Assembly: GCF_000455365.1 (NCBI RefSeq)
Contig: NZ_HG315685.1
Span: 582,461-646,460, forward strand
Reading direction: 5' to 3'
Length of the DNA stretch: 64,000 nt
Source of the DNA: Halopiger djelfimassiliensis
Lineage (GTDB): Archaea; Halobacteriota; Halobacteria; Halobacteriales; Natrialbaceae
Part shown: in pieces, positions 44,586 through 49,559 of the stretch
Layout: the number at the start of each line of letters is the position of its first letter
Numbering within the stretch: position 1 is the first letter of the stretch
The notes under the pieces: generated by a model
What the model was told of the DNA's origin: nothing
What the model saw: only the letters and a program-made list of their open reading frames with translations
Databases searched by the model: none
Position numbers and translations under genes: made by a program

Positions 44586-44593
44586 ATTTATGA
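44586..44593 (+). promoter_or_regulatory. TATA box of vapBC
   Basis: ATTTATGA about 28 nt before the ATG at 44617. The spacing supports a leaderless vapB start rather than the in-frame ATG at 44590, which lies inside the box. Confidence 0.6.
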
Positions 44594-44616
44594 ACGGCGG
44601 CCTCGTAGTCCCGTCT

Positions 44617-44868
44617 ATGAGTAGTGAGCGCGTCGACTCCGAGAGCAAGGTTTCGGGGAATCAAGCGAACATTCCCGCCCGCATCCGCCGTGAACTCGAC
44701 ATCGACGACGGCGACAAACTCCGCTGGCGCGTCGAGGACGACGGCACGCTCCGCGTCACGGTCGTCCAGCAGCGCAGCGGGACGTTCGGCGGCTTCGACG
44801 GCTACGACGGCGATCGGACGACAGCCGTAGAGAGCGACCACGACGCGTGGGGCGTCGACGTCGAATAG
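44617..44868 (+). CDS. vapB: VapB-type antitoxin, AbrB/SpoVT DNA-binding domain
   Basis: 83 aa. SESKVSGNQANIPARIRREL followed by IDDGDKLRWRVEDDGTLRVT is the swapped-hairpin AbrB fold; the C-terminal tail GGFDGYDGDRTTAVESDHDA probably wraps the toxin. Directly abuts vapC (TAG then ATG). Likely autorepresses the operon through the AbrB domain. Confidence 0.88.
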   Translation: MSSERVDSESKVSGNQANIPARIRRELDIDDGDKLRWRVEDDGTLRVTVVQQRSGTFGGFDGYDGDRTTAVESDHDAWGVDVE

Positions 44869-45303
44869 ATGCCGCGTGCACTCGTCGATACGACCGTTCT
44901 CTTCGCGGCGGCGTACCGCCGTGACAGCGCCCACGAGGATGCCCTCCCGATCCTCAGGGGAATCGACACCGGTGCCCTCCCGGAAGCGGTGATCCTCGAT
45001 CACGTCCTCGCAGAGACGCTCAACGGGCTCACGACCCACGCGGGCCACGACGCCGCCGTCGACTTTTTCGATCGGATCGAAGAGAATACGCGATTCCACA
45101 TCGACTCACTGACGGCGGACGAGTTTGCCGCGGCGAAAGCACTCTTTCGGCAGTACGAGCGCTTCTCGTTCGTCGATGCCTGTATCGTTGCCTACATGCA
45201 GGGCGAGGGGATCGGGTACTGCTACGCCTTCGACGACGATTTCGACGCTTCCGAGGACATCTCCCGTCTCGACGTCGCAACGAACCCGTATCGACCGGAG
45301 TGA
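44869..45303 (+). CDS. vapC: VapC toxin, PIN domain ribonuclease
   Basis: 144 aa. PIN acidic residues are in order: Asp7 (RALVDTTVLFA), Glu49 (DHVLAETLNG), Asp103 (RFSFVDACIV), and Asp122-124 (AFDDDFD). Predicted Mg2+-dependent RNase, neutralised by VapB. The C-terminus LDVATNPYRPE is echoed by a remnant at about 46760-46790 next to unit C. Confidence 0.88.
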   Translation: MPRALVDTTVLFAAAYRRDSAHEDALPILRGIDTGALPEAVILDHVLAETLNGLTTHAGHDAAVDFFDRIEENTRFHIDSLTADEFAAAKALFRQYERFSFVDACIVAYMQGEGIGYCYAFDDDFDASEDISRLDVATNPYRPE

Positions 45304-45398
45304 CCGAGACGCGATCCTCTCGGAATCTTCCGACAGCCCGAGGGACAACGGCTCGAGAAAAGGGGAGTGGTCGTCAACCGATCCGAATCGACGACCGG

Positions 45399-45611
45399 TC
45401 ACCGATCCGCGTCGATCACCGTCACCTCGTCGGGACCGATCACGACGCGGTAGCCCTCGTACTCGAACCGGACGGTAACGTCCGCGTTCGACTCGAGGAC
45501 GGCGGTCAGCGCCCCGGGATCGATGGAATCGTACAGCGGTGGCAACGTCGTTCGGTCGCAGTCCTCACGGACCGCGATTCGTGTGAGTGCCGTGGTGAGT
45601 GCTGAATGCAT
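45399..45611 (-). CDS. Solo HalOD1 output-domain protein, copy B
   Basis: 70 aa, MHSALTTALTRIAVREDCDR then LPPLYDSIDPGALTAVLESN and VRFEYEGYRVVIGPDEVTVI. Nearly identical to copy A in the second half. Starts 47 nt inside the overlapping zinc-ribbon gene. Convergent with vapC. Confidence 0.75.
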   Translation of the reverse strand: MHSALTTALTRIAVREDCDRTTLPPLYDSIDPGALTAVLESNADVTVRFEYEGYRVVIGPDEVTVIDADR

Positions 45612-45744
45612 CGTAGTCGTCGGGGAGTTCGACAACAGTCAGCGCGAACGCTGCCTCACAATCGGGACACGTTGCCGGCTCGTCGGTCGTCGTCATATCG
45701 ACGTCGGTACCACAGTCGCAGTGGAGTGTAATTCTCGAGACCAT
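45565..45744 (-). CDS. 59-aa zinc-ribbon protein, copy B
   Basis: MVSRITLHCDCGTDVDMTTT, then TCPDCEAAFAL; same length and layout as copy A and C. The overlap with HalOD1 B is again 47 nt. Replacements relative to A are scattered through both frames of the overlap. Confidence 0.7.
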   Translation of the reverse strand: MVSRITLHCDCGTDVDMTTTDEPATCPDCEAAFALTVVELPDDYDAFSTHHGTHTNRGP

Positions 45745-46036
45745 ATGTTACTCGGTTTGCAGGCCCCGACGCAGCGAAAGGCAATCCAGCGAGCGACCCA
45801 GCGGCAGCTACGACTGTATCGGCGGGACGTCGGCAGGTCTTTATTTCGCCAACGCCAATGGTGGATTGCTCCCGCTTCGCGGGGGCGGATGTGTGAGCCG
45901 GAGTGTGTGGTTGGTGCTGTACACTCCGGCTCTGCGCACTTTCGTGCGCGTTTCTGCGTTACGCAAGCAACCCTAAAGAACGTTAGGATATTGACCGGTT
46001 GGTCGGTTTCGATAAAACGCGATGTCCCTACGGGGG
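45745..46036. repeat. Multi-hairpin conserved non-coding block, copy B
   Basis: Same order of elements as copy A: TATA-like cttTATTTcg (about 45840), CCCGC/GCGGG (45871-45883), a perfect 12-bp stem GAGCCGGAGTGT/ACACTCCGGCTC (45895-45932), GCGCAC/GTGCGC (45934-45949), CCTAA-agaacg-TTAGG (45972-45987), then a CCC-tacg-GGG end. Confidence 0.7.
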
Positions 46037-46207: not shown

Positions 46208-46498
46208 ACTTCAACCTTCCAAGGGTTCGTCTGAAACCAGCGCGTCCACCACGTCGAACGGCGACCCGGTGCTTCAACCCCACAAGGGTTCGTCTGAAAC
46301 CCGATGGAGACCTCGAGATCGATCTCGCTCCCGGAGCTTCAACCCCACAAGGGTTCGTCTGAAACTGCTTTGAGTGGCTTCGGGATGCTGGTCATCCCGT
46401 GGCTTCAACCCCACAAGGGTTCGTCTGAAACCGGTTTCGAAAGAGCGTATCGACACTGAGCGAAAGCCGCTTCAACCCCACAAGGGTTCGTCTGAAAC
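46208..46498 (-). CRISPR. CRISPR array, 5 repeats and 4 spacers
   Basis: 30-nt repeats at 46208-46237 (degenerate), 46271-46300, 46336-46365, 46402-46431 and 46469-46498; spacers of 33, 35, 36 and 37 nt. On the minus strand the repeat begins GTTTCAGACGAACCC and ends GGGGTTGAAGC, the haloarchaeal type I-B form. The degenerate copy marks the leader-distal end, so transcription is leftward. No cas gene is in the window; Cas proteins would have to act from elsewhere. Confidence 0.95.
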
Positions 46499-46699: not shown

Positions 46700-46795
46700 C
46701 CTCGCTACCCGTCTCTATTGCCTCTTGCGCGCTCTCGCCGGCCTCGAAGACGTCTCCCCGACGTCACAACGAACCCGTTTCAACCGGAGTCATCG
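46700..46795 (+). pseudogene. VapC-like C-terminal remnant beside unit C
   Basis: The sequence gacgtcacaacgaacccg, then caaccggagtcat, matches the end of vapC (gacgtcgcaacgaacccg, then gaccggagtga), in frame encoding LPDVTTNPFQPE versus RLDVATNPYRPE. Upstream similarity fades quickly (a weaker match around YCLLRALAGLEDVSP in another frame). It shows that unit C was once flanked by a PIN gene, as unit B still is. 46621-46885 has no other gene. Confidence 0.5.
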
Positions 46796-46885
46796 GGACG
46801 CGTTCCTCTCGGAATCTTCCGACAGCCCAGCAACAACGGCTCGAGAAAAAGGGGAAATCGTCCGTCGATTCGAATCGACGACCGG

Positions 46886-47098
46886 TCACCGATCCGCGTC
46901 GGTCACCGTCACTTCGTCGGGACCGATCACGACGCGGTAGTCCTCGTACTCGAACCGGACGGTAACGTCCGCGTTCGACTCGAGCAGTGCGGCCAACGCC
47001 TCGGGATCGATGGAATCGTACAGCGGTGGCAACGTCGTTCGGTCGCAACCCTCATGGGCCGCGATTCGTGCGAGTGCCGTGACGAGGGTGGGATGCAT
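46886..47098 (-). CDS. Solo HalOD1 output-domain protein, copy C
   Basis: 70 aa, MHPTLVTALARIAAHEGCDR then LPPLYDSIDPEALAALLESN. Same size and 47-nt overlap as copies A and B; an additional ATG lies 9 nt upstream (47107). Confidence 0.75.
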   Translation of the reverse strand: MHPTLVTALARIAAHEGCDRTTLPPLYDSIDPEALAALLESNADVTVRFEYEDYRVVIGPDEVTVTDADR

Positions 47099-47231
47099 CG
47101 TACTCATCGAGGAGTTCGACTACTGTCAGCGCAAACGTTGCGTCGCAGTCCGGACAGGTGGCCGGCTCATCGGTCGTCGTAGTATGAACATCGGTACCAC
47201 AGTCGCAGTGGAGTGTAATTCTCGAGACCAT
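47052..47231 (-). CDS. 59-aa zinc-ribbon protein, copy C
   Basis: MVSRITLHCDCGTDVHTTTT, then TCPDCDATFALTVVELLDEY and a terminal RHGTRTNRGP. The four zinc-ligand cysteines are kept in all copies. Confidence 0.7.
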   Translation of the reverse strand: MVSRITLHCDCGTDVHTTTTDEPATCPDCDATFALTVVELLDEYDASHPRHGTRTNRGP

Positions 47232-47518
47232 ATGTTACTCGGTTTGTAGGCCCCGACGCAGCGGAACGCACTCCAGCGAGTGACCCAGCGACAGCTACGA
47301 CTGTGTCGGCGAGACGTCGGCAGGTCTTTATTTCGCCAACGCCAATGATGGATTGCTCCCGCTTCGCGGGGGCGTATCGTTGAGCCGGAGTGTGGGGTTG
47401 GTGCTGTACACTCCGGCTCTGCGCACTTTCGTGCGCGTTTCTGCGTTACGCAAGCAACCCTAAAGAACGTTAGGATATTGACCGGTTGATCCGGTCGGTG
47501 TCGCTCCGGCGACGGGAT
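47232..47518. repeat. Multi-hairpin conserved non-coding block, copy C
   Basis: Hairpins CCCGC/GCGGG (47358-47370), a perfect 12-bp GAGCCGGAGTGT/ACACTCCGGCTC (47382-47419), a GCGCAC/GTGCGC stem and CCTAA/TTAGG as in B. Shared sequence ends near 47488; a different nested hairpin (GATCC...GTCGC-tccg-GCGAC...GGATC, 47488-47518) takes the place of the end hairpin, 8 nt from the stop of the membrane-protein gene. Confidence 0.7.
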
Positions 47519-47525
47519 CAGGACT

Positions 47526-47789
47526 CTATGTCCAAGGAAAAATCCCTCCGATTGAAATAAGCGCCAATACAGACAAAATAAGAGAAAGAGCGTACTGGTG
47601 ATCGTCCATCCAATCCCGAACACTGGATGACGATAACCAAGATATACAGAGGAGTGAGATAGCGAATAAGCCAATAGCAGTTACAAAGTTATTTATAACA
47701 ATCATCAAGGCACCGACTACGAGCGAGCCGATTCCAGTGATGATAACGCCAATCAGTTGGGATTTTGTTGGATCGTGCCCACTAGACAT
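47526..47789 (-). CDS. Small membrane protein, possible immunity partner
   Basis: 87 aa with three hydrophobic helices (about 11-28, 32-50, 67-84): LIGVIITGIGSLVVGALMIV, FVTAIGLFAISLLCI, SLILSVLALISIGGIF. AT-rich codon use, like the upstream secreted protein gene 69 nt away on the same strand. Size, topology and position fit a bacteriocin immunity protein; this is inference from context only. Confidence 0.6.
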   Translation of the reverse strand: MSSGHDPTKSQLIGVIITGIGSLVVGALMIVINNFVTAIGLFAISLLCISWLSSSSVRDWMDDHQYALSLILSVLALISIGGIFPWT

Positions 47790-47858
47790 AATTATATGTT
47801 TACTAATTATGTATGTATTAAAAACGCCGATTGGGATGTCTATTGGTGTATACAGTGC

Positions 47859-48950
47859 TTATTCACACGGAACAGCAATATACCAATATTCTGTGTCTCC
47901 CCGAGTATTCGTCTCTTCAAATACATACGCATATCTGAAAGTACAACTAGTGTCCTCCTTAAATGCATTTACTAATTCAGTTACTGTACAAGAAGCGACG
48001 GTTGCAACTACACCGCCGCCAACTATAGCAAGTGTACCGGCTCCAGCACCGACGCCAGTTAGGGTGATGCCGATACCACCACCAATAGTTAACGCGCCAC
48101 CATAGGCACACGCTCGTTGCAGATCTACCGTAAAGCTGTACTCTGCATCGATATTATTCATTTCATCTTTGAGATCTTCTGGTGGTTTTCTTTCAGGTGT
48201 TGGATCTAAGTCAACGTTCTCAATTATTGGTTCCGATTGTTCATATGCCTCCTCAGCCCAATCAGAGGCTTCATCCGTTAGGTAATCTGCAGTTTCTGTG
48301 AACGTGTCTGCCGTATTACTTATGATCTCTTTACCAGAATCAATAACTGACTCAGCTGCTTCTCGGATATCACTCCAACCGGGAATGTTTATCTGTGGCT
48401 GAGGGGAGTCTGAAGGATAATCACTAGATCCAGGGAACCGCGCAATATATCCTTTTTCTTCTTCCCTAAGTATTTCATCACTAGTATAAAGTGTTCCAAG
48501 TGGGCGATCTTCATTTGAGGCTCTTACCCAAAGTTCAAGTTCCGAAGCATCACCGCTGACTGAATAGCCAGAAATATCTACTGAAAGCGAGTCATCCTGT
48601 TTGTTATCGGTTGGTATGTGAGCAACAAGACCACTGTCATCGAACCTCTCGTGTTTTTCATCTACTTCATAGACGACACCTTCTTCAAACTGAGGAATGA
48701 AATCACCCTCAACAATCATTTTTTCAACAGAACCGTACTGTTTAGACTTGGTGATCTCATTAATAAAGTGTTCCTTTCTCTCATTAGAGACTTCATGGAT
48801 GTGGTTTTCTTGAGAGTTTTCCTTATCATCAGCAGCAGCAATCCCTGTAACAGCAACTGAACCTAGACCGAAACTAGCGATTGACCGAAGAACATCTCTT
48901 TTGGTTGCATTTCCGTTCGCCACTTCTTTACGACCATATCCATCGGACAT
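47859..48950 (-). CDS. Exported glycine-rich cysteine protein, halocin-like candidate
   Basis: 363 aa. N-terminal export signal (TKRDVLRSIASFGLGSVAVT, a twin-arginine-type motif with Lys-Arg, then GIAAADD). A long hydrophilic middle (about 45-275), then a C-terminal 83-residue part with a glycine-rich hydrophobic run (GGALTIGGGIGITLTGVG and on to about 320) and cysteines at 281, 321, 336 and 362. The layout (Tat signal, long pro-part, hydrophobic Cys-bearing C-terminus) recalls halocin C8 precursors, without evident sequence identity. GC is far below neighbouring genes. A minus-strand TATA-like tttaata lies about 30 nt upstream (about 48980). Confidence 0.6.
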   Translation of the reverse strand: MSDGYGRKEVANGNATKRDVLRSIASFGLGSVAVTGIAAADDKENSQENHIHEVSNERKEHFINEITKSKQYGSVEKMIVEGDFIPQFEEGVVYEVDEKHERFDDSGLVAHIPTDNKQDDSLSVDISGYSVSGDASELELWVRASNEDRPLGTLYTSDEILREEEKGYIARFPGSSDYPSDSPQPQINIPGWSDIREAAESVIDSGKEIISNTADTFTETADYLTDEASDWAEEAYEQSEPIIENVDLDPTPERKPPEDLKDEMNNIDAEYSFTVDLQRACAYGGALTIGGGIGITLTGVGAGAGTLAIVGGGVVATVASCTVTELVNAFKEDTSCTFRYAYVFEETNTRGDTEYWYIAVPCE

Positions 48951-49559
48951 AGCATATGGATGTTATAACACTGCATATTAAACCCTATTATTAAGGGAAT
49001 CTACTAAGTACACATAGTTCATAATTTTAATTTTTAACTAATCGTGTATATGGGTCTCCTCAAATTGTATTAGAATATATAAGGCCCGAATTATCCTACC
49101 GCTGTTCGATTCTTTCCTCAGTCACCAACATCCCTCAAGGAGTCTTATATCTCGAAAAGCGATCCTCCAGTCACAGAATCATTCGAAACGAGTCGTCAAA
49201 GCAGTCCTGAGCAGCACTACCGACGGTCCCGCGCAACGACTCCGCCCCCTCGAGAAACGCGCGGTCGCGATTCGCCTGCGAACCCGTCGTCCACCTCGCA
49301 TGTCGTCCCCGAACACCTGCTGCACGCAATTTATCCTAAAGAACGGGCGGATACTGATCGGTTTGTCGGTTGTCGGACGGACGAACCGCGATGTCTTCGG
49401 GCAGGGGACTCGCGTGGCGCATGCTCTGCGCGCCACGCGAGCGCGAAGACATCCGACCGGAACGGTAGAGCAACGTTTCCCCACCGGTAGGGTGACCGGA
49501 GTCTCGATACCCCCTCGAGTCCACGTCGAATTCCACCGATCGACCAAGGTCTTGCTGTA
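48951..49559. other. Gene-poor region, AT-rich then GC-rich
   Basis: 609 nt. 48951-49170 is AT-rich and holds the promoter of the secreted-protein gene. 49180-49559 is GC-rich with hairpin element D. An ORF at 49179-49547 on the minus strand has an implausible arginine-rich translation and spans the hairpins, so it is not called. Confidence 0.5.
49318..49510. repeat. Hairpin element D, partial relative of blocks A-C
   Basis: Starts with cacgcaatttatcctaaaga then a gatcggtttgtcgg-like stretch shared with block A. It ends in a nested inverted repeat: outer GATGTCTTCG (49390-49399) with CGAAGACATC (49444-49453), inner CGCGTGGCGC (49411-49420) with GCGCCACGCG (49430-49439). It lacks the HalOD1/zinc-ribbon genes. 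Sequence after the hairpin (acggtagagcaacgtttc, accggtagggtgaccgga) is shared with element E. Confidence 0.6.

What the first reader, a model, noticed from the sequence alone, without database searches (positions are those of the whole stretch)
47526..48950. Halocin-like exported protein with a small three-helix membrane partner in an AT-rich islet
The 363-aa protein has a Tat-like signal, a long hydrophilic pro-region and an 83-residue C-terminus with a glycine-rich hydrophobic run and four cysteines; an 87-aa three-helix membrane protein follows 69 nt downstream. Composition is clearly lower in GC than all surrounding genes, indicating transfer. The layout is that of a microhalocin/bacteriocin and immunity pair, but I see no direct sequence identity to halocin C8, so it would be a new family.
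Basis: partly seen in the sequence, partly recalled or inferred. Interest (0 to 1): 0.72.

Follow-up and report, generated by a model that had tools for sequence, protein, structure and literature searches.

The report
Halocin-type toxin precursor with membrane partner
A salt-loving archaeon carries a small foreign-looking gene pair that most likely makes an exported peptide antibiotic, joined to the same kind of self-protecting carrier as the known halocin C8 but with an unrelated toxin end, plus a small membrane protein that probably protects the producer.

Summary
A 363-aa protein with a Tat-like (KR) signal ends in an 83-residue, 4-Cys, glycine-rich hydrophobic segment. An 87-aa three-helix membrane protein follows 69 nt downstream. 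Both lie in a 43% GC islet; the large gene has the lowest GC3 of 40 ORFs in the window.

With the signal removed, the pro-region is remotely homologous to that of halocin C8 precursors (hhalign 92%, score 44 against a shuffle maximum of 10). The shared part includes a predicted helix-loop-helix at the place where one was reported essential for HalI self-immunity. The C-terminal domain is not related to mature halocin C8. The same pro-domain also carries a third Cys-rich C-terminal type. In two genomes pro-domain and toxin-like domain are separate adjacent ORFs.

All four Cys are conserved in relatives. In 8 of 9 loci with this C-terminus a small membrane gene follows. Its family differs with toxin subtype, and it stays intact beside wrecked toxins in three lineages, as expected of immunity genes.

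I file it as a new toxin type within a halocin-C8-like precursor architecture. Killing, processing and immunity are inferred. Structure prediction was uninformative.

The parts
47859..48950 (-). Exported precursor, 363 aa
   Evidence: ORF; relatives L002, L003, L025 with all four Cys invariant
48825..48950 (-). Tat-type signal region (res 1-42; KRDVLRS ... AAADD)
   Evidence: sequence; relatives keep (K/R)R-x-(F/V/I)-L-(R/K)-S
48594..48821 (-). Pro-domain (about res 44-119) homologous to halocin C8 precursors; predicted helix-loop-helix at res 52-79 (48714-48797)
   Evidence: hhalign 92%, P 5.9e-7, score 44.4 vs shuffled max 10.0; two-way HMM hits
48141..48383 (-). Acidic helical linker (about res 190-270), conserved in the window-type family (PPEDLKDEMNN etc.)
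   Evidence: alignment A1; helix res 150-197 of the submitted fragment in a low-confidence model
47862..48110 (-). C-terminal toxin-like domain, res 281-363, Cys 281/321/336/362, Gly/Ala-rich hydrophobic stretch
   Evidence: not homologous to the mature halocin C8 domain
47526..47789 (-). Partner, 87-aa three-helix membrane protein, probable immunity protein (type A)
48976..48982 (-). TATA-box-like TTTAATA, 32 nt upstream of the ATG (inference only)
   Evidence: sequence; no test of function

Best explanation
The pair is a transferable haloarchaeal bacteriocin (halocin) unit. The 363-aa precursor is folded in the cytoplasm and exported by the Tat system. Its pro-domain, a relative of the HalI part of halocin C8 precursors, keeps the C-terminal domain harmless, probably through the helix-loop-helix. 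A protease outside the cell then frees a peptide of about 83-100 residues with two disulfides and a Gly-rich hydrophobic hairpin, which inserts into membranes of related archaea. The 87-aa three-helix membrane protein protects the producer's membrane from that peptide. Shown here: gene layout, conserved cysteines, pro-domain homology, non-homology of the toxin end to halocin C8, a small membrane gene in 8 of 9 loci whose family differs with the toxin subtype, and partner genes outlasting toxins. Inferred: export, cleavage, pore or membrane action, and immunity.
For: Pro-domain homology to halocin C8 precursors with the Tat signal removed: C8-type profile finds L002 at E 3.5e-4 and the window at 0.023 (best shuffled decoy 0.043); reverse profile finds C8 precursors at 8e-5 (best decoy 0.18); with circular members removed, hhalign 92.2%, score 44.4 vs 150 column-shuffles max 10.0. 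Four Cys invariant. Small membrane ORF directly downstream in window, L002, L003, L025, L117, L128, L129, L132 (8 of 16 non-C8 members) and 13 of 31 C8-type loci, against 1 of 72 background genes. C-terminal types A, B and C go with partner types A, B and C. Partner B is intact beside truncated or broken toxins in Natrinema pallidum contig 35 (L026), G387 (L086) and Halobacterium salinarum DSM 3754 (L167), with dN/dS about 0.2-0.3. Partner A also occurs beside an unrelated Cys-rich precursor with the same pro-domain (L117). Low GC/GC3, transposases next to relatives.
Against: No activity data of any kind. Partner A genes mostly stand alone in other haloarchaea, so the family may have another job. 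Partner B is less conserved than the toxin C-terminus (62% vs 84% between G005 and N. pallidum), which is not what a strict lock-and-key pair predicts. Toxin/partner concordance rests on only about three independent pairings. Several pro-domain members have no recognisable partner (L083, L095, L009, L133, L137). Single-sequence AlphaFold model was uninformative (pLDDT 35).
Confidence: 0.7

Rival explanations
1. The toxin reading is right but self-protection comes from the HalI-like pro-domain alone; the membrane protein has another role, such as helping export or processing.
For: In halocin C8 one gene encodes both toxin and immunity (PMC3831642), and the bona fide halocin C8 loci L054-L057 lack a small membrane partner. 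The pro-domain here is homologous to theirs.
Against: Partners stay intact where the toxin is wrecked (L026, L086, L167) and occur without any toxin; an export or processing helper would have no reason to persist.
Confidence: 0.15
2. A non-toxic Tat-exported surface or matrix protein whose C-terminus associates with the membrane through the small partner.
For: No toxicity data; the hydrophobic Gly-rich stretch could be a membrane association segment.
Against: Rare and patchy (4 intact or nearly intact copies in 125 family genomes, several remnants), low GC, transposase neighbours, pro-domain shared with halocin C8 precursors, and unrelated Cys-rich ends on one carrier, which fit a toxin arsenal better than a structural protein.
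Confidence: 0.1
3. The membrane protein is a generic haloarchaeal small membrane protein that lies next to the precursor by chance.
For: Type A partners occur alone in about 20 genomes with ordinary neighbours.
Against: Small membrane genes follow 21 of 47 members of the wider group vs 1 of 72 background genes; type A partner recurs in N. pallidum contig 72 next to a 60%-identical toxin remnant and beside the L117 precursor.
Confidence: 0.07

Closest known systems
Halocin C8 precursor ProC8 (HalI + HalC8; TIGR04449 domain)
   Same: Tat-type signal, homologous pro-domain including the region of the HalI helix-loop-helix, Cys-rich hydrophobic C-terminal peptide, often a small membrane gene downstream in the wider C8-domain family
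   Different: C-terminal domain not homologous (no TIGR04449 match, hhalign 0.1%), 4 instead of about 10 Cys, extra acidic helical linker, longer protein
Bacterial class II bacteriocin plus membrane immunity protein pairs
   Same: Small hydrophobic Gly-rich toxin followed by a short multi-helix membrane protein gene (comparison from general knowledge)
   Different: No sequence relation beyond a sub-threshold Pfam hit (Bacteriocin_IId E 0.078, below cut-off, on the partner rather than the toxin); large Tat-exported pro-domain instead of a double-glycine or Sec leader
HapP/HFX_0892 protease-activated precursor of Haloferax mediterranei (PMC12893001)
   Same: Secreted haloarchaeal precursor activated by an extracellular serine protease
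   Different: There the N-terminal fragment is the active part; sequence relation not tested here

Membership tests
Halocin C8 peptide family (TIGR04449) | C-terminal halocin C8-like domain above the model cut-off | tested here: not met
   No NCBIfam hit for the window protein; own genome has no TIGR04449 match; hhalign CT vs C8 mature domain 0.1%, 31 of 60 shuffles as good
Halocin C8-type precursor architecture | Twin-arginine type signal peptide | tested here: met
   By motif only: KRDVLRS + hydrophobic core + AAADD; relatives KR/RR; KR instead of RR, and export itself not tested
Halocin C8-type precursor architecture | HalI-like pro-domain | tested here: met
   Signal-free profile comparisons
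Halocin C8-type precursor architecture | Proteolytic release of a C-terminal peptide | not testable with these tools
   Needs mass spectrometry of supernatants
Halocin (functional class) | Kills or inhibits haloarchaea | not testable with these tools
   No activity data
Bacteriocin-immunity pair (functional class) | Small membrane gene adjacent and kept with the toxin | tested here: met
   8 of 9 window-type loci have a small membrane gene downstream; enrichment vs background
Bacteriocin-immunity pair (functional class) | Partner confers protection | not testable with these tools
   Indirect only: persistence beside wrecked toxins

The most novel reading that the evidence does not exclude
Haloarchaea run a modular toxin platform: one ancient Tat-exported, self-neutralising pro-domain is fused to at least three unrelated Cys-containing toxin types (halocin C8, the window type, and a third Cys-rich type), paired with exchangeable small membrane immunity proteins. 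In some genomes the pro-domain and toxin are separate adjacent genes, the toxin lacking its own signal, which would mean the pro-domain carries the toxin through the Tat pore in trans.
Probability: 0.5. Interest if true: 0.72.

Novelty: new variant of a known kind. Interest (0 to 1): 0.55.

Why it matters
Halocins are thought to be nearly universal in haloarchaea but few are known at the sequence level. A shared carrier/immunity domain gives a handle to find toxins that share nothing with halocin C8, and it separates two questions that halocin C8 mixes in one gene: what the pro-domain does and what a separate membrane protein does. The split-gene relatives allow a direct test of neutralisation and Tat hitch-hiking in trans.

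Tried and rejected
Known-family searches of both proteins (Pfam, NCBIfam, PHROGs, PADLOC): nothing significant. Plasmid and phage records: no match for the precursor; the partner was searched in plasmids only. IMG/VR viral contigs (precursor profiles only): none. First genome-contig scan with the whole-protein profile: none; second, with the C-terminal profile, gave N. pallidum and H. salinarum. Solved structures: nothing. Single-sequence AlphaFold of the mature precursor: pLDDT 35, pTM 0.19, discarded; relatives fetched by the genome search are not on the tool's list of allowed inputs, so no alignment-based model was made. Homology of the toxin end to halocin C8 or to the third Cys-rich group: tested, rejected. 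Weak TIGR03062 hit of the partner (17 bits vs cut-off 102): rejected. Empty-site search in relatives by flanking genes: no conserved synteny in the genomes sampled, inconclusive. Bacterial promoter scan: no more hits than shuffles and not suited to archaea. Makarova 2019 and Mei 2008 could not be read.

Full report
What is there. The window lies in a haloarchaeal genome (G000), in the same family as Natrinema: G034, which shares family f1 with the window genome, has contigs of the same number and length as Natrinema pallidum DSM 3751. On the minus strand a 363-aa ORF (48950..47859) is followed after 69 nt by an 87-aa ORF (47789..47526). The first has a Tat-like signal of the KR type, a hydrophilic pro-region, an acidic helical linker and an 83-residue end from Cys281 with Cys at 281, 321, 336 and 362. 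The second is called as three TM segments. GC is 43% in both; GC3 of the large gene is the lowest of 40 ORFs.

Relatives. A scan of 391 Halobacteria and 125 genomes of the window's family found four intact or nearly intact genes of the window type: the window itself, G005 (34% identity) and two in G321. It also found 3' remnants in N. pallidum contigs 35 and 72, in G104 and in G387. A separate scan added a broken copy in Halobacterium salinarum DSM 3754. The four cysteines are invariant in the four longer sequences. The C-terminal domains fall into A (window, N. pallidum 72, G104), B (G005, N. pallidum 35, G387; the H. salinarum remnant also reads as B) and C (G321 twice, six Cys); A and B are clearly homologous (37-39%, z 15-17).

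The partner. Behind A (except the G104 remnant, which has no recognisable partner) stands a partner of the window family, behind B a different family beginning MNYGIV or MNYAIV, behind C a distant relative of B's partner; A and B partners show no similarity (z 0.9-2.3). In N. pallidum 72 the partner itself is broken into two frames. So the toxin domain stayed recognisable while the membrane gene was exchanged. There are only about three independent pairings. In three lineages (N. pallidum 35, G387, H. salinarum) the toxin is truncated or stopped but partner B is intact, with dN/dS about 0.2-0.3 between these copies. Partner A homologues occur in 26 of 391 genomes, mostly alone. One of them (L117) follows a different Tat-type protein with a Cys-rich end and the same pro-domain. 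Persistence after loss of the toxin is what an immunity gene does; an export helper would not be expected to persist. The alternative, that this is a general small membrane protein family recruited here, is not excluded for type A.

The link to halocin C8. The window protein does not match TIGR04449, the halocin C8 domain, which occurs in 43 of 391 genomes. Yet the first search already returned a C8-domain precursor through residues 15-128 (L006/L027). To test this without the signal peptide I cut signals and toxin ends, built profiles and used shuffled and real ORF decoys: hits in both directions above decoys. With extra non-C8 members, and with the C8 proteins first found through the window removed, hhalign gives 92.2%, P 5.9e-7, score 44.4; 150 column-shuffles reach at most 10.0. 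The aligned part starts with a helix, a short loop and a second helix by predicted pattern (window res 52-79), then strands. For halocin C8 one gene encodes toxin and immunity (PMC3831642), the precursor leaves by the Tat pathway (PMC11509114), and by its title Mei et al. 2008 found the helix-loop-helix at the N terminus of HalI essential for immunity (reference list of PMC11509114; paper itself not held). That the shared segment is the same element is inference from position and predicted pattern.

Modularity. The window-type toxin end is not homologous to mature halocin C8 (0.1%; 31 of 60 shuffles as good) nor detectably to the third Cys-rich group found on the same pro-domain (L117, L129-L133, L095, L083, L009). 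It is probably related to the second ORF of L014 and L128 (48.6%, 0 of 60 shuffles). In these two genomes the Tat signal and pro-domain form one ORF and the toxin-like domain the next, 1-2 nt later, with no obvious signal of its own. Small membrane ORFs follow 8 of 16 non-C8 and 13 of 31 C8-type members against 1 of 72 background genes, once the three window-type loci are taken out of the background.

Mechanism proposed. Tat export of a folded, self-neutralised precursor; extracellular cleavage; membrane insertion of the Gly-rich hairpin in competitors; protection of the producer by the pro-domain and the membrane partner. Export, cleavage, killing and protection are inference from families, not shown.

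Mobility. G005 and the G104 remnant lie next to related transposase genes (DDE_Tnp_1 Pfam match for the G005 gene), and an IS1595-like transposase gene lies near the N. pallidum contig 72 remnant. The flank to the left of the islet is a direct duplication in the window. The same flank (81-87% identity) stands next to the toxin remnant in N. pallidum contig 72. The islet may therefore travel with its flank by recombination.

Novelty. The class (halocin precursor with Tat signal and pro-domain) is known. A new non-homologous toxin end on that carrier, exchangeable membrane partners and split genes are, as far as I could check, not described in the papers held; Makarova et al. 2019, which by my memory of its abstract expanded the halocin C8 family, could not be read. 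Hence 'new variant of a known kind'.

Noticed in passing
window 46208-46498: Mini CRISPR array of five repeats (RF01337 CRISPR-DR24) with four spacers; cas genes not looked for.
   Followed up: partly
window 45270-46036 and 46759-47495: Direct duplication about 1.49 kb apart (86-95% in pieces), each copy with a HalOD1-domain ORF; the CRISPR array lies between and the toxin islet directly follows the second copy.
   Followed up: partly
window 44590-45303: MazE-like antitoxin and PIN-domain toxin gene pair.
   Followed up: no
L128 1285-2468 and L014 (minus strand of locus): Split arrangement: Tat signal plus pro-domain ORF, then a Gly/Cys-rich toxin-like ORF 1-2 nt later without its own signal, in two genomes of different families.
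   Followed up: partly
L167 4845-5459 (Halobacterium salinarum DSM 3754): Intact type B partner beside a broken toxin, next to a rhodopsin/transducer gene pair.
   Followed up: partly
L116, L122, L111 and similar: Solo small membrane genes of the partner A family, often with GC below that of the locus and some near transposases; possible orphan immunity genes.
   Followed up: no
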